Source of the DNA: Flavobacteriales bacterium
Lineage (GTDB): Bacteria > Bacteroidota > Bacteroidia > Flavobacteriales_D > JABDKJ01
DNA: 33,697 nt
Direction: 5' to 3'
Assembly (NCBI GenBank): GCA_013001705.1
Contig: JABDLZ010000305.1
Location: forward strand, 1 to 33,697
This document shows, piece after piece, positions 18,309 through 25,469 of this stretch. How positions within the stretch are numbered: position 1 is the first letter of the stretch; each line of letters opens with the position of its first letter. A program made the translations under genes and the position numbers. The notes beneath the pieces were generated by a model, which saw nothing but the letters and a program-made list of their open reading frames with translations, had not been told where the DNA came from and did not search any database.

Positions 18309-19445
18309 TCAGTCTTTGAAAAAGGACTCTACCGAGTGTATCACATGTTCCTGTGATTCCCTATCCAACTCGTAGTAGAGTGGCAGCCTGATCAAGCAGT
18401 CGGTGTATCTATCGGCCTGAGGCAGATCGGGATGATAGTCGGGGTAGATATTTTGGATAAATGTGCTCTTATGTAGGCTCAGATAATGGAAAACGGCATA
18501 GATTCCTTCTGATTTCAAATGGCTGATCAAGGCGGTACGTGTGTCGAGATCATGTACTACGATGTAGAACATATGACCGTTATTACTGGCATATTCAGGC
18601 AGATAGGGTAGTTTGATCCGACCTTTCTCCTCGAGTTCCTTAAGACCTTGATGGTATCGTTCCCAGAGTACCTTTCTGCGAGACTGGATTTCTTCTATGT
18701 TCTCCAGTTGCGCATAGAGGAATGCTGCTGTGACCTCGGAGGGTAAGAAAGAAGAGCCTATATCCACCCAGCCATACTTATCGACCTCACCTCGCCAAAA
18801 TGCAGCCCGATCTGTCCCTTTTTCCCAGATGATCTCAGCTCTGTTGACGAATCGTTCATCATTGATGACCAAGAGGCCTCCCTCTCCTGAGATGATATTC
18901 TTGGTCTCATGAAAAGAGAATGCCGCTAGATGCCCTAAAGACCCTAAAGGCTTTCCCTTGTAGGTGCTATCAATGGCTTGTGCTGCATCCTCGATGATCA
19001 ATATCTTTTTATCTGCAACGGCTTCATTCAGTGCATCCATATCTACCGCTACACCGGCATAGTGGACCACTACTATAACCTTTGTACGGTCGGTGATACA
19101 GGCTCGTATGGAATCCACGCTCACATTGGGTTCGCTTGACTTACTATCGGCAAAGACAACTGTAGCTCCACGAAGGATGAATGGATTTGCTGAACTCACA
19201 AAGGTGTATGACGGAACGATGACCTCATCATCTGGCCCCACCTCTGACAGGATGGCCGCCATCTCCAGCGCATCGGTACACGAGGTAGTAAGGAGCGTTT
19301 TACGGAAGCCGAAAGTACTTTCGAAGAAAGCTTGACATTTCTTGGTAAAAGTCCCGTTGCCCGAGATCATTCCTGAAGCCACAGCCTCTTCGATGTACTT
19401 GGTCTCTTTCCCTGTAAGGAAGGGCTTGTTGAAAGGAATCTGCAT
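18309..19445 (-). CDS. WecE/RffA-like sugar-nucleotide aminotransferase (DegT/DnrJ/EryC1/StrS family)
   Basis: This encodes 378 residues from the ATG at 19445 (MQIPFNKPFLTGKE); a longer in-frame start at 19547 would run into the upstream gene and lacks conservation. It is a PLP-dependent aminotransferase that resembles E. coli WecE closely over its whole length. Shared motifs are TSCTDALEMAA, DEVIVPSYTFVSSAN, VHYAGVAVDMD and IEDAAQA. FSFHETKN contains the PLP lysine at residue 182, and WVDIGSSFLPSE follows. WecE converts dTDP-4-keto-6-deoxyglucose to dTDP-4-amino-4,6-dideoxygalactose (Fuc4N) using glutamate. The exact sugar here is inferred. It is the last gene of the six-gene operon, starting 1 nt after the PglD-like gene's stop. 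Confidence 0.92.
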   Translation of the reverse strand: MQIPFNKPFLTGKETKYIEEAVASGMISGNGTFTKKCQAFFESTFGFRKTLLTTSCTDALEMAAILSEVGPDDEVIVPSYTFVSSANPFILRGATVVFADSKSSEPNVSVDSIRACITDRTKVIVVVHYAGVAVDMDALNEAVADKKILIIEDAAQAIDSTYKGKPLGSLGHLAAFSFHETKNIISGEGGLLVINDERFVNRAEIIWEKGTDRAAFWRGEVDKYGWVDIGSSFLPSEVTAAFLYAQLENIEEIQSRRKVLWERYHQGLKELEEKGRIKLPYLPEYASNNGHMFYIVVHDLDTRTALISHLKSEGIYAVFHYLSLHKSTFIQNIYPDYHPDLPQADRYTDCLIRLPLYYELDRESQEHVIHSVESFFKD

Positions 19446-19446
19446 G

Positions 19447-20106
19447 CTAGACCTTGGTGCTGAGACTGTTCTTATCAAGTCGATCGGCCGGACGTGCTGA
19501 ATACACCTCCCCTGCTCGGGTGTCCTTCTTGATGACTGCTCCCCCACCTATGATGCACTTCTCTGCCACCGTGATGTTGTCCCTGAGTGTACAATTGATG
19601 CCGAGGAAGCAATTATCCTTGACAACGATACGACCTGATACAGAAGCCCCTGGGGCTAGAAAACAATGGTCCCCGATAGTGCTATGGTGCGCCACCACAG
19701 CGTTGGACCAGAGAACTGTGTTCTTTCCGATGACAGCTTCGGGTTCTATAGTCACTCCATCGAAAACGAAAGAACCCTCACCAACGCTATCCTCAGACCA
19801 TACATTGGCCCGAGAAGAGATAAAAGTGAATGCTTCATAGCCTTTGACCACAGCTTCATTGAACAAGCGCTCTCGAATTGTATTGACCTGATTGGGCCCT
19901 ATCCCCGCGATGACAATATGATCTCCGGTCGGATAGTGCTCTTCCAGATCCTCGAATGGAACTACCGGTAGACCTTGAAAATCATCGCTGGACAAGAAAT
20001 CACGTTCTACTGTAAAAGCCACCACCTCCACTTCTCCATCCCGTGAGATATAGCGAAGGGCCATTTCTGCATAGTCACCGGTGCCTATGATGATCAATTT
20101 CTTCAT
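19447..20106 (-). CDS. PglD/NeuD-like sugar acetyltransferase
   Basis: This encodes 219 residues. The N-terminal Rossmann-like domain (MKKLIIIGTGDYAEMALRYI, and IAGIGPNQ near residue 67) and a C-terminal left-handed beta-helix (from about residue 100) match the PglD/NeuD family. AHHSTIGDHCFLAPG places His140 where PglD has its catalytic His. The ending DTRAGEVYSARPAD is typical. PglD N-acetylates a UDP-4-amino sugar with acetyl-CoA. Next to the aminotransferase gene, the natural reading is acylation of the 4-amino group. The start overlaps the methyltransferase stop by 4 nt. O-acetylation of another sugar remains possible. Confidence 0.88.
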   Translation of the reverse strand: MKKLIIIGTGDYAEMALRYISRDGEVEVVAFTVERDFLSSDDFQGLPVVPFEDLEEHYPTGDHIVIAGIGPNQVNTIRERLFNEAVVKGYEAFTFISSRANVWSEDSVGEGSFVFDGVTIEPEAVIGKNTVLWSNAVVAHHSTIGDHCFLAPGASVSGRIVVKDNCFLGINCTLRDNITVAEKCIIGGGAVIKKDTRAGEVYSARPADRLDKNSLSTKV

Positions 20107-20732
20107 CCTTTGGATTTACGGATCATCAGGGTGAATTCGTAGAGCTCGTAGTCATGGTCTATGACCCAATCCCTACCACAGTTATCAATGAGAAACCGGG
20201 TGAGCTCATTGAGATCCGGATAGTAGAGTCGCTCATAGGTATAGTCCACATAGGGTGACATCAGATTGATGATTACGGCCTTTCTGGCCAGTTGGTGCAT
20301 CTTCAATATCGAGGACTTAACATAGGAGGCCCATGCTTCCATGTCTGTACCAATGCTGGCATTGAAGGTGCCTGAAGCGATCACATAGTCATGCGCTTCT
20401 GTGAAGTCATCGATGGGACCAAGGTAGACCTGGACCTCAGGATGGGTGGCCTTTACATGTTCGGTCATCTCTGGCACGATATCCAGACCGGTATAGGCTA
20501 TCTCCTTTCCCAAGGACTTGCAATAGGCATAGTATGATCCTGCACCGCAACCTACATCCAAGACAGAAGGAGATACGTCCAGATCGATGTAGCGATTTAT
20601 CACTTCGAACCGCAGTTCTTGGCTTTCTTCATCTTTCCAGTCCACTCCTTTGGCAGTGAAGCCGCTCTCAGAAAGCTTCTCTTGATAGTATCCGATGATA
20701 CGTTCCTCATTGGGTATTCTCTCGGCACTCAT
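20103..20732 (-). CDS. Class I SAM-dependent methyltransferase
   Basis: This encodes 209 residues. SAM-binding motif I is VLDVGCGAGSYY (residues 57-68), followed by YTGLDIVPEM, whose acidic residue should bind the ribose, and a motif near FNASIG. The C-terminal part (YLYERLYYPDL-like region around residue 160) is specific to a poorly described group found beside sugar-modification genes. It overlaps both neighbours by 4 nt. A role in methylating a sugar or its acyl substituent is inferred from context; the substrate cannot be read from sequence. Confidence 0.82.
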   Translation of the reverse strand: MSAERIPNEERIIGYYQEKLSESGFTAKGVDWKDEESQELRFEVINRYIDLDVSPSVLDVGCGAGSYYAYCKSLGKEIAYTGLDIVPEMTEHVKATHPEVQVYLGPIDDFTEAHDYVIASGTFNASIGTDMEAWASYVKSSILKMHQLARKAVIINLMSPYVDYTYERLYYPDLNELTRFLIDNCGRDWVIDHDYELYEFTLMIRKSKG

Positions 20733-21643
20733 AGCTCTTGTTTGATGACTGTGAGCGGGCGTTGCTTGATTTCGATGAACATCTTACTGATATACATTCC
20801 CACTACTCCAAGACATAAGATGATCACCCCACTCAAGAACCAGATAGAGAGGATCAGACTGGGCCATCCACCCAAGTACTCTTTGAGAAATAAAGCACTG
20901 GTGAGGTAGTACAGACTGATGATGAAACTGATACTGCTCATTAATATCCCTAGATAGAAGACGTAAACCAAGAGTCTGTGAGTAGATGAGGTTATGGCAT
21001 CGATCATCAGGCTGAGTCGTTTCCTGAAGGAATAATTGCTCTCTCCACGTGAACCCTTTTCAACTTCCACCGAACGCTGATCGAAGCCGACCAAAGCAAA
21101 TACTCCACCCAAGAAGAGAGACCTTTCTTGGAATTCTGACAATGCATCCACATAGGGTCGGGATACCAGTCGGGCCATGAGTATGTTCTTCTCTATGGGA
21201 ACATCGGCCAGTTTGTTGAAGGCCCAATAGAAAAAGGAACCGAATATCCGTTCGCCCCATCCTCCTTTACGTGCTGATTGGACTCCATAGACTGCATCCA
21301 CATTCTCCGAATCCATGTGCTCGTAGAAGGTGGCCAATAATTCCGGTGGTTCTTCGAGATCACAATCGATGATGAATACCCTGTCTCCAGAGGACTTCCT
21401 GATACCCGTCATGATCGCTTTATGATGTCCGAAGTTCCGTGACAGTTCAATGATGCGGATGCGTGGGTCATCGGCCTTGAGCGATTGTAAAAGAGCTATA
21501 GAATCATCGGTGATACCATCAATGACATAGATGAATTCGGCCTCCTCTATTGCGAGACGATCCAGCACTTCACACGTGCGGCTGTGGAATTCTCGGAGGA
21601 ATCCTTGTGAACGATACACACTGGTGACAATGCTGACCTTCAC
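20729..21643 (-). CDS. GtrB/ArnC-like polyprenyl-phosphate glycosyltransferase (GT2)
   Basis: This encodes 304 residues. The GT-A domain (1-220) has VSIVTSVYRSQGFLREFH, then IELSRNFGHHKAIMTG, and IIDCDLEEPPELL with the DxD at residues 93-95, matching the DPMS/GtrB/ArnC group (usually DADLQDPPE). SRGESNYSFRKR near residue 205 is the characteristic interface motif. Two C-terminal membrane helices (about 225-250 and 265-290) anchor it, as in GtrB and ArnC. These enzymes move a sugar from a nucleotide to undecaprenyl or dolichyl phosphate. The usual DDGSTD is altered to IDGITDDS. It overlaps neighbours on both sides by 4 nt. Confidence 0.88.
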   Translation of the reverse strand: MKVSIVTSVYRSQGFLREFHSRTCEVLDRLAIEEAEFIYVIDGITDDSIALLQSLKADDPRIRIIELSRNFGHHKAIMTGIRKSSGDRVFIIDCDLEEPPELLATFYEHMDSENVDAVYGVQSARKGGWGERIFGSFFYWAFNKLADVPIEKNILMARLVSRPYVDALSEFQERSLFLGGVFALVGFDQRSVEVEKGSRGESNYSFRKRLSLMIDAITSSTHRLLVYVFYLGILMSSISFIISLYYLTSALFLKEYLGGWPSLILSIWFLSGVIILCLGVVGMYISKMFIEIKQRPLTVIKQEL

Positions 21644-22335
21644 TGCTGCGCTGATCGTTTAATGAAGTTTCTTGAATTCCCTCCCTCATGGAACATAAGG
21701 TCTAAGATACTGAGTCCATGTTCAAAATGCGTCCCTGCTTGGGAATACTCTGGATATCCTTCATAATCCATCCATTCGACCTCGATGCCTTGCTTTTGAA
21801 ATCTAGGTACATCTATATAGGTCCTTGCAGATGGGCCAGAGAGATAGATGTCTGCATTCAGTTTATCACATAGGTCCAGTATGCGTTCTTGTTTATCACC
21901 TTGAAGCGCGTAATCCGTACTCTCCGTGATGGGAGTGTCAATGTCCAAGTACCTACAGACCTCTAATATCAGATGCCTGTTGATATCGCTCAACATGTCC
22001 GATTCGATTTCGGTGTACCATTTCTCTATCAGTGGCATGAGTTCCTTGAATGCTCCGGCCCGGCCATAGCATGCTTTTAGGGTCTTCAGATGTTTCTTTC
22101 TCCAAAGTTCACTGGCCACTTGTGTCTCATTGACCTTTTGAGATAGCCCTTCAACCCGAACAGGTATAGTGATCCACTGGGTATTACCATGTGCATCTTT
22201 GATCTTATTCCTATTGCGCCAGTCATTCTTGGTGTACTGTACTTCATCATAGAACACGAAGTGGTCCACCTCATCGATCATATCGAAATAACCCTTCCAA
22301 GGAATATAATTGGATTGAAGTAGCGCAATCTTCAT
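21640..22335 (-). CDS. WbqC-like family protein
   Basis: This encodes 231 residues. The start MKIALLQSNYIPWKGYFDMI and the following FYDEVQYTKNDWRNRN, TQWITIPV and YLSGPSARTYID mark the WbqC-like family of O-antigen and exopolysaccharide clusters. Biochemical function is not established to my knowledge. A role in attaching an amino-acid or acyl group to a 4-amino sugar has been suggested for members near aminotransferase genes, but this is from memory and should be treated as inference. Soluble, no signal peptide. It overlaps the HTTM-DCC gene and the GT2 gene by 4 nt each. Confidence 0.85.
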   Translation of the reverse strand: MKIALLQSNYIPWKGYFDMIDEVDHFVFYDEVQYTKNDWRNRNKIKDAHGNTQWITIPVRVEGLSQKVNETQVASELWRKKHLKTLKACYGRAGAFKELMPLIEKWYTEIESDMLSDINRHLILEVCRYLDIDTPITESTDYALQGDKQERILDLCDKLNADIYLSGPSARTYIDVPRFQKQGIEVEWMDYEGYPEYSQAGTHFEHGLSILDLMFHEGGNSRNFIKRSAQQ

Positions 22336-24212
22336 AGTTCCCTCTGTCGGCTTGTGTCGAACTCTCCATCTACCCAGACCACTTCACCCCACTCCTCCCA
22401 TGGTCGGTTGAGGTTTTCGGTCAGTAGATCCTTTTCCCACTTGAAGACGGGTCGGTCTGAGCGTGTCGTGACCCTGAAGCGTTGCTGACCTTCCACACCG
22501 CGACCTGTCGACATCAGCCAGTAGGCGGTGTAGCGTTTTAGTCCGGCAATCAAGGCCTCATCATCTGCTTGGGAATAGCATACTCTGAATGTCCAGTGAA
22601 CAAATGTCCCTCCACTGAGCATTTCCCCTGGCAATCCTTCCGCACTGGTCATGGGCAAAAGGATTCGTTCATCACCCTGCTGATATTCTACCGCAAATGA
22701 TCTGATCTTATTGAAATGCCCATCCATGAATACCGGGTGTCGGGTGATGCCAATGAGCTTCCTAGAGTAGGCCTCCATCCCATTGTGGAAACTATTGACC
22801 GGGGATTGAATCCTTTCCGGAAGATGAGAGAGCATCTGCTCTGTCCATTGCTTCGGGTAGGGTGAGAATAGACTGACATTGATCTGGAAGATGAGAAGGA
22901 TCAGAACTCCATACTTCAGCAGATTGAATTCCAGCTGTTCACTGTTCAGATTCCTGAAGATTCTAGTCGGCTTTTCCTCATATGGAGAGCGCAGCAGAGG
23001 TAGTCCGCAGTTCTCTTCGTTACACCGCTCGGTATCCCGAGCATCAGCGATGTAGCGATAGACCTTTGCCGAGACCTGTTGCAGACCAGGCAGTGAGACC
23101 ATAGGCAAGAATATCCAGAACGCTGGGACCCGCTTGAATACCTCTCGATAGCTGGCCAATCCTTCAAAGGTATTGCCCTTGTACTGGGTGAATACACTAT
23201 CCAAAAGCTCTTCTCTCGTATTCTCTTTTAGGAGTTCATGCTGATCAGGCAGTGACTGTATCGCTACGAAATCGACCCGTGAACGGAAATCGAAATATTC
23301 GATGATCCATTTGGTCCTCAAGCAGAGAGGGCATTCTGCATCGTAATAGAAATGCAGTGGCTCATACTCTGAATTCCTATTGAATATCGAACCGATCCTT
23401 CTCCACCAAGAAAAGGGGAACATAAGTACGTAGATGAATGCACTACCCAGAGCAAAGTATGGAATAGGGAACTCTATATATATACCTATGTGCAGTCCGA
23501 TTCCTATAAGAAGAAACGGGATTCGGAAGGGCTTGAACCAGAATGTGAAGATGAATATCGTCTCAAACAGTACAGTCAAATACCCCAGACCCCTGACCAG
23601 CCATTCTTGATTCAGAATGAACTGATCCTTGCAAATGGTGATCTGTGTGATGGAGGCCGGCAACCACATACCTAAGCCTTCCATCCACATGGGGGAGGTG
23701 ATCTTGTACAGAACCGAGTCCGCGTAGACCACACCCAATCCGAATAGAACAGGAAGGAAGTAGGCATAGACCCTGACTGTACGTTCTTCTTCATACTCTT
23801 GCTTGGATGAAGAGAACCGGATCTTCCTGCGAAGACGATCCAAAGACATCACTCGGTCTATCGGTAGGAAAATCACCATCAGGCTCAACCCAGTGTATAC
23901 ATAGTCCATGTGATACTCGAACATATCCAGATCACTCATGTAGACCAGGATCAAGAGATAGTTGATGACGGTGGCCCAGCGTGTGAAGAGTCCAAAGACG
24001 ATGAAGACCAAGGAGATCATCCAGATACACAGCGGGATAGTCAATGCGATCTCTGAACTCTCGAGGAAAGGGACCCGATCGAAGATCAACTTCCGGTACG
24101 TGAAAATATGGAAGACCTCGAGGAGAAGATTGGTGAAGAAGAGGATGCGGAAGACAGCTAGCCCTGTAGCAGGTACCTTTTTGGCGAATATGCGCTCGAA
24201 GAACCTATTCAT
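22332..24212 (-). CDS. HTTM (vitamin K-dependent carboxylase-like) - DCC thiol oxidoreductase fusion
   Basis: This encodes 626 residues from the ATG at 24212 (MNRFFERIFAKKVPATGLAVF). A longer open frame to 24581 has no family similarity and would cover the divergent gene. Residues 15-275 form an HTTM domain of several helices with FRILFFTNLLLEVFH, EYHMDYVYTGLSLMVIFLPI and LLIGIGLHIGIYIEF. From residue 287 a DCC/DUF393 domain starts FYYDAECPLCLRTKWIIEYF (D291, C294, C297). Another helix follows near residue 455, then a soluble C-terminal domain with TRHPVFMDGHFNKIRS. HTTM is homologous to gamma-glutamyl carboxylase, a quinol-dependent enzyme; the bacterial function is mostly unknown. It is the first gene of the six-gene operon. 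Confidence 0.85.
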   Translation of the reverse strand: MNRFFERIFAKKVPATGLAVFRILFFTNLLLEVFHIFTYRKLIFDRVPFLESSEIALTIPLCIWMISLVFIVFGLFTRWATVINYLLILVYMSDLDMFEYHMDYVYTGLSLMVIFLPIDRVMSLDRLRRKIRFSSSKQEYEEERTVRVYAYFLPVLFGLGVVYADSVLYKITSPMWMEGLGMWLPASITQITICKDQFILNQEWLVRGLGYLTVLFETIFIFTFWFKPFRIPFLLIGIGLHIGIYIEFPIPYFALGSAFIYVLMFPFSWWRRIGSIFNRNSEYEPLHFYYDAECPLCLRTKWIIEYFDFRSRVDFVAIQSLPDQHELLKENTREELLDSVFTQYKGNTFEGLASYREVFKRVPAFWIFLPMVSLPGLQQVSAKVYRYIADARDTERCNEENCGLPLLRSPYEEKPTRIFRNLNSEQLEFNLLKYGVLILLIFQINVSLFSPYPKQWTEQMLSHLPERIQSPVNSFHNGMEAYSRKLIGITRHPVFMDGHFNKIRSFAVEYQQGDERILLPMTSAEGLPGEMLSGGTFVHWTFRVCYSQADDEALIAGLKRYTAYWLMSTGRGVEGQQRFRVTTRSDRPVFKWEKDLLTENLNRPWEEWGEVVWVDGEFDTSRQREL

Positions 24213-24296
24213 GGATTGCGTTAAGTGGAGCAAAGTAAGGCAATTAAAGAAAGGAAGTGCATTAGCTTTCCAGACGGGCCATGAGCAATGTTTGGC

Positions 24297-24304
24297 TAGG
24301 TTTG
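24297..24304 (+). promoter_or_regulatory. Putative -7 element (TAGGTTTG) of the 24312 glycosyltransferase
   Basis: TAGGTTTG matches TAnnTTTG and ends 7 nt before the ATG at 24312, suggesting a nearly leaderless message. No TTG at the expected -33 spacing. The facing minus gene (start 24212) has only an imperfect element, TTACTTTG. Confidence 0.4.
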
Positions 24305-24311
24305 TCGACCG

Positions 24312-25469
24312 ATGAAGATCCTTTTCATCATACCGTCCATCACCAATTACTACACCTTTTTGGAGGATATCGCCCGCGAACTGCAGGAGCGCGGGAATGA
24401 GGTATTCCTTGCGAGTTCTACCAAGCACATCTCTCAGATAGACTGCTATGATCGGGAAGTCTTCGGAGAACTGGTAGAAGTGGATTTCCCACGTGGATTC
24501 GAATGGAACAAGCACCTGAGCTCGGCCAAGAGATTGAGAGAGATAGTCAATGAGATCAAGCCTGACCTGATCAACGTACACTTCTCAGCAGCTATGTTCA
24601 CTACAGCTATAGCCAAAGAGCCTAGTTGGCCACGTACTGTGGCCATGATACATGGTCTGGCCTACCCGATCTTGAAAGGGTGGAGAAAACTGGCTATAGG
24701 ATCCGCTGAACGATGGGCTGCAGGAAAAATGGATCAAATCATTCTTCTGAATGAATCCGACCGTCAAGTACTCAGTGGCCATGTAGATTCTTCTCGCATC
24801 AAGGTCCTTGAATCATTCGGTCTGGGCTGTGATCTGGAAAAATTCAATCTGGATGTCATCCCCCAAGAAGAACAGATTCGATACCACCGAAGATTGGGCG
24901 TGAGAGATGGGGATTTCGTCTTCATTTTCGTTGGACGTCAAGTGGATTTCAAGGGTTTTGACAAACTCATACGGGCCTTCTTGCAACTCTATGAGGATCA
25001 TAAGAATCTGAAGCTCATACTCGTAGGGGCCAAAGACCGCATCCATCCGACCAATCTCACGCCAGAAGAGGAAGAGCAGATGCGCAGGTGCCCGGGCATT
25101 GTCAATGTCGGTTGGAAGGAGAATGTCTACCACTACCTATGTGTAGCCGATGTGAATGTCTTCCCAAGCGAGCGTGAAGGAATGCCCGTCAACCTCATGG
25201 AGTCACTCGCCATGGGCGTTCCTGTGATCACCACAGATTCCAGAGGGTGCAATGAAGTAGTGGAACATGGGCTCAATGGACTGGTCATGAAGGCCAATAC
25301 CGTAGAAGAGATACGGGATAATATGGACCGCCTCTATCAGGAGCCGGATCTATTGAACAAGCTCAAGCAAGGAGCCTTGGATAATCGCCATCATTTCGAC
25401 CGGACCCGATTCATAGAGGAGATGCTCGAAATTTTCGAATCCGACCTCGCCACAAGCCCGAGTTCATAG
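24312..25469 (+). CDS. Glycosyltransferase family 4
   Basis: This encodes 385 residues. The start MKILFIIPSITNYYTFLEDI and the motif LINVHFSAAMFTTAIA resemble the N-terminal acceptor domain of PglA/WcaL-like GT4 enzymes. The donor domain has FIFVGRQVDFKGFDKLIRAF, then ADVNVFPSEREGMPVNLMES, with the E-x7-E pair in EGMPVNLME, and AMGVPVITTDSRGCNEVV. Cytoplasmic. It is followed by galE after 19 nt, so UDP-galactose or UDP-GalNAc is a plausible donor, though this rests only on adjacency. Both genes carry a TAnnTTTG element of their own just upstream. Confidence 0.9.
   Translation: MKILFIIPSITNYYTFLEDIARELQERGNEVFLASSTKHISQIDCYDREVFGELVEVDFPRGFEWNKHLSSAKRLREIVNEIKPDLINVHFSAAMFTTAIAKEPSWPRTVAMIHGLAYPILKGWRKLAIGSAERWAAGKMDQIILLNESDRQVLSGHVDSSRIKVLESFGLGCDLEKFNLDVIPQEEQIRYHRRLGVRDGDFVFIFVGRQVDFKGFDKLIRAFLQLYEDHKNLKLILVGAKDRIHPTNLTPEEEEQMRRCPGIVNVGWKENVYHYLCVADVNVFPSEREGMPVNLMESLAMGVPVITTDSRGCNEVVEHGLNGLVMKANTVEEIRDNMDRLYQEPDLLNKLKQGALDNRHHFDRTRFIEEMLEIFESDLATSPSS

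What the first reader, a model, noticed from the sequence alone, without database searches (positions are those of the whole stretch)
22332..24212. HTTM-DCC fusion with an extra C-terminal domain leads a glycan-modification operon
Seen: an HTTM-like membrane domain, a DCC domain with D291-x2-C294-x2-C297, another helix and a soluble C-terminal domain containing TRHPVFMDGHF in one 626-residue protein, first in a six-gene operon of sugar-modifying enzymes. Known: HTTM is homologous to vitamin K-dependent gamma-carboxylase, which needs reduced quinone, and DCC proteins are predicted thiol oxidoreductases. Inference: the DCC cysteines could recycle a quinone or handle disulfides for the HTTM site, making this a possible self-contained redox-coupled membrane enzyme acting on a lipid-linked or surface glycan. 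Fusions of this type may be common in Flavobacteriia even if the function is not known.
Basis: partly seen in the sequence, partly recalled or inferred. Interest (0 to 1): 0.6.

Follow-up and report, generated by a model that had tools for sequence, protein, structure and literature searches.

The report
Carboxylase-like membrane enzyme in sugar operon
The gene encodes a rare bacterial membrane protein that shares its core and key catalytic residues with the human vitamin K-dependent carboxylase and almost always sits beside genes that make an unusual amino sugar for the cell surface, so it probably modifies that sugar, while its attached thiol-redox domain is an optional extra that relatives have lost several times.

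Summary
The protein is real: 626 aa, minus strand, first of six tightly packed genes. DCC1-like matches Pfam clearly. HTTM is not detected in this protein alone, but profile comparison (98.9%, E 1.6e-17) and an AlphaFold/Foldseek search (top 16 PDB hits all GGCX) place its N-terminal half in the vitamin K carboxylase superfamily. Essential GGCX Lys218 and His160 are conserved as K170 and H101. The C-terminal domain is not the VKGC lumenal domain and matches no Pfam family or PDB fold. I collected 24 relatives plus one remote one across Bacteroidota. The family is rare (7/394 class genomes, 0/394 phylum genomes). Its link to amino-sugar genes is strong: NeuD and WecE lie downstream in 15 of 16 complete loci; 32 control HTTM loci have neither. 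DCC active-site cysteines were lost, or the domain deleted, repeatedly (7 changes, at least 4 forced), while K170, H101, H241, H492 and H499 stay invariant in all 22 main-family members. DCC is predicted cytosolic; the HTTM site and C-terminal domain face the periplasm. DCC is therefore not an essential partner of the HTTM site. Best reading: a carboxylase-superfamily enzyme modifying a lipid-linked 4-acylamino-4,6-dideoxy sugar, with DCC accessory. Chemistry and substrate are inferred.

The parts
22332..24212 (-). HTTM - DCC - TM - C-terminal-domain fusion protein, 626 aa (P0001), first gene of the operon
23361..24212 (-). HTTM (vitamin K carboxylase-type) membrane domain, residues 1-284, about 8 TM helices
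   Evidence: hhalign 98.9%, E 1.6e-17; family HMM hits classical VKGC proteins at up to 1.7e-13; Foldseek GGCX
23910..23912 (-). H101, equivalent of GGCX His160
   Evidence: hhalign and phmmer to GGCX chain; invariant in 22/22 main-family members
23703..23705 (-). K170, equivalent of GGCX Lys218 (catalytic base)
   Evidence: invariant in 25/25
23490..23492 (-). H241, equivalent of GGCX His287
   Evidence: invariant in 25/25
23037..23348 (-). DCC1-like thioredoxin-type domain (Pfam stretch, residues 289-392), predicted cytosolic
   Evidence: (E 4.6e-16); topology
23322..23342 (-). D291-x2-C294-x2-C297 motif of DCC
   Evidence: repeatedly lost in relatives
23007..23024 (-). second cysteine pair C397-x4-C402 (TERCNEENC), lost in the relatives that lose the DCC cysteines (one Cys remains in L100)
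22869..22943 (-). transmembrane helix, residues about 424-448, linking cytosolic DCC to the periplasmic C-terminal domain
22335..22868 (-). C-terminal soluble domain (residues 449-626), predicted periplasmic, no Pfam or PDB-fold match
22713..22745 (-). T490-x-H-x-VFMD-x-HF motif of the C-terminal domain (H492 and H499 invariant in 22/22)
21640..22335 (-). WbqC-like protein (PF08889)
   Evidence: E 9.6e-79
20729..21643 (-). GT2 glycosyltransferase with C-terminal TM helices, ArnC/PgfS/GtrB-like (probable undecaprenyl-phosphate sugar transferase)
   Evidence: below equivalog cut-offs
20103..20732 (-). SAM-dependent methyltransferase
19447..20106 (-). NeuD/PglD/VioB-type sugar N-acyltransferase
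   Evidence: TIGR03570 177.9 bits, cut-off 160.8
18309..19445 (-). WecE, dTDP-4-amino-4,6-dideoxyhexose transaminase
   Evidence: NF008687 550.2 bits, cut-off 375; TIGR02379 491, cut-off 434.85

Best explanation
The protein is a membrane enzyme of the vitamin K carboxylase (HTTM/VKGC) superfamily. It probably acts at the periplasmic face of the inner membrane on a lipid-linked 4-amino-4,6-dideoxyhexose. WecE makes the amino sugar, NeuD (with WbqC or an ATP-grasp enzyme) acylates its 4-amino group, and a GtrB/ArnC-like or WecF-like transferase puts it on the lipid carrier. The HTTM domain supplies the reaction centre (K170 as base, H101 and H241), most simply using menaquinol as GGCX uses vitamin K hydroquinone. 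The C-terminal periplasmic domain with THxVFMDxHF holds the glycan substrate. The DCC domain is an insert in the cytosolic loop between the HTTM and the last TM helix; it is an accessory, not part of the catalytic core. Shown here: domain homology, conserved catalytic residues, operon, repeated DCC loss. Inferred: substrate, side of action, use of a quinol, role of the C-terminal domain.
For: HTTM homology: hhalign 98.9%, E 1.6e-17; AF2 model and Foldseek, top 16 PDB hits all GGCX, 15 with E 6e-6 to 3e-4. K170/H101 align with Lys218/His160, which are reported essential in GGCX (PMC9146348). Operon: NeuD + WecE downstream on the same strand in 15 of 16 complete loci; the 16th (L100) has WecE just upstream and no NeuD; 14 of those 15 also hold a GT2 or GT56 sugar transferase. 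0 of 32 control HTTM loci (16 classical, 16 single-domain) have WecE, NeuD or GT2 relatives. Chance of any DegT gene within 16 kb is about 5% per locus. A remote homolog (L106) whose HTTM is not recognised by the family HMM keeps the same set of genes, WbqC-MTase-NeuD-GT2-WecE. DCC dispensable: D-x2-C-x2-C lost or domain absent in L061c, L062a, L062c, L065, L068, L100, L102, 7 changes on the tree with at least 4 forced by well-supported branches. Topology by positive-inside rule matches GGCX (N-terminus cytosolic, C-terminus lumenal; PMC5343777).
Against: No biochemical data on any member. Residues equivalent to K218/H160 occur in bacterial HTTM proteins of unknown activity, so they do not prove carboxylation or quinol use. 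No VKOR in 9 genomes, so a GGCX-type cycle is not supported, and menA was found in only 3 of 6 genomes (other menaquinone routes not tested). Operon membership shows pathway, not the reaction; acting on the glycan polymer, on a protein, or in transport is not excluded. Side of the membrane rests on charge counts.
Confidence: 0.45

Rival explanations
1. Self-contained redox enzyme: the DCC cysteines recycle the quinone or handle disulfides for the HTTM site in the same chain.
For: DCC is fused in most members and its two Cys pairs are intact in 15 of 25 sequences. All loci that carry the epimerase-ATP-grasp-HAD module (or ATP-grasp-HAD alone, L069) keep at least one intact DCC (11/11), while loss is confined to loci without it (4 of 6; uncorrected p 0.006).
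Against: Repeated independent loss with the rest of the protein intact. Predicted cytosolic side, opposite to K170/H101/H241. G763 keeps the enzyme but has no DCC1-like protein in its genome. The module correlation is not significant once phylogeny is allowed for (2 pairs, sign test 0.5).
Confidence: 0.12
2. The protein is not an oxygen/quinol enzyme: it is a transferase, flippase partner or scaffold for the lipid-linked amino sugar that reuses the HTTM fold, with the two invariant histidines of the C-terminal domain (H492, H499) as the active or metal site.
For: The C-terminal His motif is as invariant as the HTTM residues (22/22); no VKOR; the remote subfamily L103-L105 loses H101 and the C-terminal histidines together but keeps K170 and H241.
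Against: K170 and H241 are invariant in 25/25 and H101 in 22/22, which a mere scaffold would not need. GT2 or GT56 transferases, and in some loci a Wzx-like gene, are already present in the operons.
Confidence: 0.3
3. The HTTM protein modifies a secreted peptide or protein (as proposed for HTTM proteins of linaridin clusters) and sits in the sugar operon for other reasons.
For: GGCX modifies proteins; an HTTM protein occurs in a linaridin peptide cluster (PMC9927463).
Against: The neighbourhood is sugar genes across several families of Bacteroidota and no precursor peptide was seen to recur next to it (ORFs under 80 aa were not clustered).
Confidence: 0.08

Closest known systems
Vitamin K-dependent gamma-carboxylase GGCX (HTTM PF05090 + VKGC lumenal domain PF22777)
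   Same: HTTM fold, predicted cytosolic N-terminus, Lys218/His160/His287 equivalents, last TM helix leading to an extracytoplasmic C-terminal domain
   Different: C-terminal domain unrelated by profile and by fold search; DCC inserted in the cytosolic loop; sugar-gene operon; no VKOR in the genome
Bacteroidota classical HTTM-VKGC proteins and single-domain HTTM proteins of about 290 aa
   Same: Homologous HTTM domain
   Different: No DCC, no THxVFMDxHF domain, no WecE/NeuD/GT2 neighbours in 32 loci
DCC1-like (PF04134, DUF393) thiol-disulfide oxidoreductase family
   Same: Domain with D-x2-C-x2-C, above Pfam cut-off
   Different: Here an insert in a membrane enzyme, and repeatedly decayed
WecE/NeuD/ArnC- or WecF-type pathway for 4-amino-4,6-dideoxyhexoses
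   Same: WecE and NeuD above curated cut-offs in the operon
   Different: Known versions (from memory) include no HTTM enzyme

Membership tests
HTTM (PF05090) superfamily | Match to the Pfam HTTM model | tested here: inconclusive
   Not for P0001; 9 of 15 homologs at E up to 10, best 2.4e-8
HTTM (PF05090) superfamily | Profile and fold homology to GGCX/HTTM proteins | tested here: met
   hhalign 98.9%, E 1.6e-17; Foldseek top hits GGCX
Vitamin K-dependent gamma-carboxylase | Catalytic Lys218 and His160 | tested here: met
   K170 and H101
Vitamin K-dependent gamma-carboxylase | VKGC lumenal domain (PF22777) | tested here: not met
   No Pfam hit; hhalign 9.6%; no fold match
Vitamin K-dependent gamma-carboxylase | Carboxylation of Glu with a quinol | not testable with these tools
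   Needs biochemistry; no VKOR found in 9 genomes
DCC1-like oxidoreductase | Match above Pfam cut-off and D-x2-C-x2-C | tested here: met
   60.5 bits against 27.8; D291, C294, C297
4-amino-4,6-dideoxyhexose operon | WecE transaminase plus NeuD-type acyltransferase in the operon | tested here: met
   Both above curated cut-offs; conserved downstream in 15 of 16 complete loci

The most novel reading that the evidence does not exclude
A vitamin K carboxylase-superfamily enzyme that uses menaquinol and oxygen to carboxylate or otherwise activate a C-H bond of a lipid-linked 4-acylamino-4,6-dideoxy sugar in the periplasm: quinol-driven chemistry of the GGCX kind on a glycan instead of a protein.
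Probability: 0.25. Interest if true: 0.8.

Novelty: new variant of a known kind. Interest (0 to 1): 0.52.

Why it matters
Bacterial HTTM proteins are widespread but, as far as I know, mostly have no assigned reaction. This family gives a defined pathway, a small gene set and natural domain-loss variants, so the question of what non-carboxylase HTTM enzymes do can be asked directly: delete the gene in a cultivable Flavobacterium, Psychroflexus or Pedobacter and read the surface glycan. It also warns against reading a fused redox domain as the engine of its partner: relatives show it can be lost.

Tried and rejected
First genome-contig scan with the single protein found nothing; the alignment-based one found 15 full-length homologs. 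PDB sequence search with P0001 and with the family profile: no hit. C-terminal domain as a diverged VKGC lumenal domain: profile comparison 9.6% and fold search of the domain alone no hit at E 0.001, so rejected, although the full-length Foldseek alignments to GGCX run over about 655 columns at high rmsd. VKOR as a quinone-recycling partner: absent. Flavobacterium psychrophilum O-antigen paper as a source for the operon's product: it describes a 4-N-acyl quinovose with strain-variable R-groups but names no DCC or WecE, so kept only as background. Correlation of DCC with the ATP-grasp/HAD module: suggestive, not significant with phylogeny. No paper holds both HTTM and DCC in the searched library. 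One extraction script picked wrong frames for minus-strand VKGC loci and was redone.

Full report
Observation. Pfam recognises only the DCC1-like domain (289-392, E 4.6e-16). HTTM is not recognised in this sequence alone. The gene is first of six: HTTM-DCC, WbqC, GT2, methyltransferase, NeuD, WecE, joined by four 4-bp overlaps and one 1-bp gap. WecE (550 bits, cut-off 375) and NeuD (178 bits, cut-off 161) pass curated cut-offs.

Relatives. Named sources include Psychroflexus, Flavobacterium, Pedobacter, Chitinophagaceae, Saprospiraceae and Cytophagaceae. The family is patchy and rare: 7 of 394 other genomes of the class and none of 394 other genomes of the phylum sample. It is not common in Flavobacteriia.

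HTTM identity. The family's N-terminal profile matches classical VKGC-type HTTM proteins of the same order with 98.9% probability, E 1.6e-17; a family HMM finds them at up to 1.7e-13; 9 of 15 family members hit PF05090 in Pfam. An AlphaFold2 model (pTM 0.79) searched against the PDB gives GGCX structures as the first sixteen hits, fifteen of them at E 6e-6 to 3e-4. Aligning a bacterial VKGC-type protein with the human chain and with P0001 maps K170 to Lys218, H101 to His160 and H241 to His287. Lys218 is reported as the base that starts the GGCX reaction, and Lys218 and His160 as essential (PMC9146348). K170 and H241 are invariant in 25 of 25 family sequences and H101 in 22 of 22 of the main family.

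C-terminal domain. It does not resemble the VKGC lumenal domain by profile (9.6%), it hits no Pfam family, and an AlphaFold2 model of it alone (mean pLDDT 84) has no PDB match at E 0.001. Its motif T-x-H-x-VF-x3-HF has both histidines invariant in 22 of 22.

Topology. Hydropathy and charge counts over the alignment give a cytosolic N-terminus, K170, H101 and H241 on the outer side, a positive exit into DCC (cytosolic), one more TM helix at about 424-448, and a periplasmic C-terminal domain. This is the GGCX layout (N-terminus cytosolic, C-terminus lumenal; PMC5343777) with DCC inserted into the cytosolic loop. The argument is predictive, not experimental.

DCC is optional. L068 lacks the domain; L065, L102, L100 and three of six tandem copies in two Chitinophagaceae loci (L061, L062) lost the D-x2-C-x2-C cysteines, and the second pair (TERCTxENC) decays with them, with one Cys remaining in L100. 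On a tree built without the DCC columns this needs 7 changes, at least 4 forced by well-supported branches. The remote L103-L105 group also lacks the cysteines. G763 has a family member (L102) and no detectable DCC1-like protein anywhere in its genome. The HTTM and C-terminal residues stay constant in the main family throughout. The DCC cysteines therefore cannot be a general requirement of the HTTM reaction. An intact DCC is present in every locus with the ATP-grasp-HAD module (11 of 11), and loss is confined to loci without it (4 of 6); the count gives p 0.006 but only two independent pairs once phylogeny is used, so this is a lead only.

Operon. In 15 of 16 loci with complete flanks, NeuD and WecE lie downstream on the same strand within about 8 kb; L100 has WecE upstream and no NeuD found. 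A WbqC gene or one of two ATP-grasp enzymes (with or without epimerase and HAD) occupies the place between the HTTM gene and NeuD in those 15 loci, and 14 of the 15 have a GT2 (GtrB/ArnC-like) or GT56 (WecF-like) transferase. The same tblastn probes found none of WecE, NeuD or GT2 near 16 classical HTTM-VKGC genes or 16 single-domain HTTM genes. Any DegT-family gene would be expected within 16 kb about 5% of the time. A remote homolog, L106, whose HTTM part the family HMM does not see, keeps WbqC, methyltransferase, NeuD, GT2 and WecE. The pathway link is therefore strong.

Mechanism. Established knowledge: WecE makes dTDP-4-amino-4,6-dideoxyhexose, NeuD/PglD-type enzymes acylate such amines, and ArnC/GtrB- and WecF-type enzymes transfer sugars to lipid carriers. 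Inference: the HTTM enzyme acts on the lipid-linked product at the periplasmic face, with K170/H101/H241 as reaction centre and the C-terminal domain holding the glycan. Quinol use is the simplest reading of the conserved residues but is not shown: VKOR is absent from the 9 genomes tested, and menA was found in 3 of 6.

Verdict. A rare new variant of the HTTM/VKGC superfamily tied to an amino-sugar pathway.

Noticed in passing
L061:7980-13732 and L062:6033-11779: Three tandem copies of the HTTM-DCC-C gene in two Chitinophagaceae loci; one (L061) or two (L062) of the three copies have lost the DCC cysteines while another keeps them.
   Followed up: partly
L055:2657-4639: In-frame stop between DCC/TM and the C-terminal domain in a MAG (L055, same record as L101); sequencing error, decay or natural split is unknown. 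The same MAG's WecE is also split in two frames.
   Followed up: no
L103, L104, L105: Remote subfamily from one family (f76) keeps K170 and H241 but lacks H101 and the C-terminal histidines, has a decayed DCC and none of the tested sugar genes nearby.
   Followed up: partly
L106:8330-10183: Remote HTTM-like/DCC/C-terminal protein with intact DCC and the same WbqC-MTase-NeuD-GT2-WecE gene set as the window, although its membrane part is not recognised by the family HMM.
   Followed up: partly
L126, L129, L026: Single-domain HTTM genes (about 290 aa) lie within 8 kb of Wzc and Wzm/Wzt-like polysaccharide export genes in 3 of 16 loci.
   Followed up: no
L107:5507-7773: Separate DCC and HTTM genes lie about 0.8 kb apart on one strand, a possible unfused counterpart.
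   Followed up: no
genome G000, contigs C231 and C197: The window's own genome also encodes two proteins with a VKGC lumenal domain, one a full-length classical HTTM type (C231), yet no VKOR.
   Followed up: no
window 24213-24311: The HTTM-DCC gene is divergent from a glycosyltransferase gene starting at 24312; the 99-bp gap shows no sigma-70-like site.
   Followed up: no
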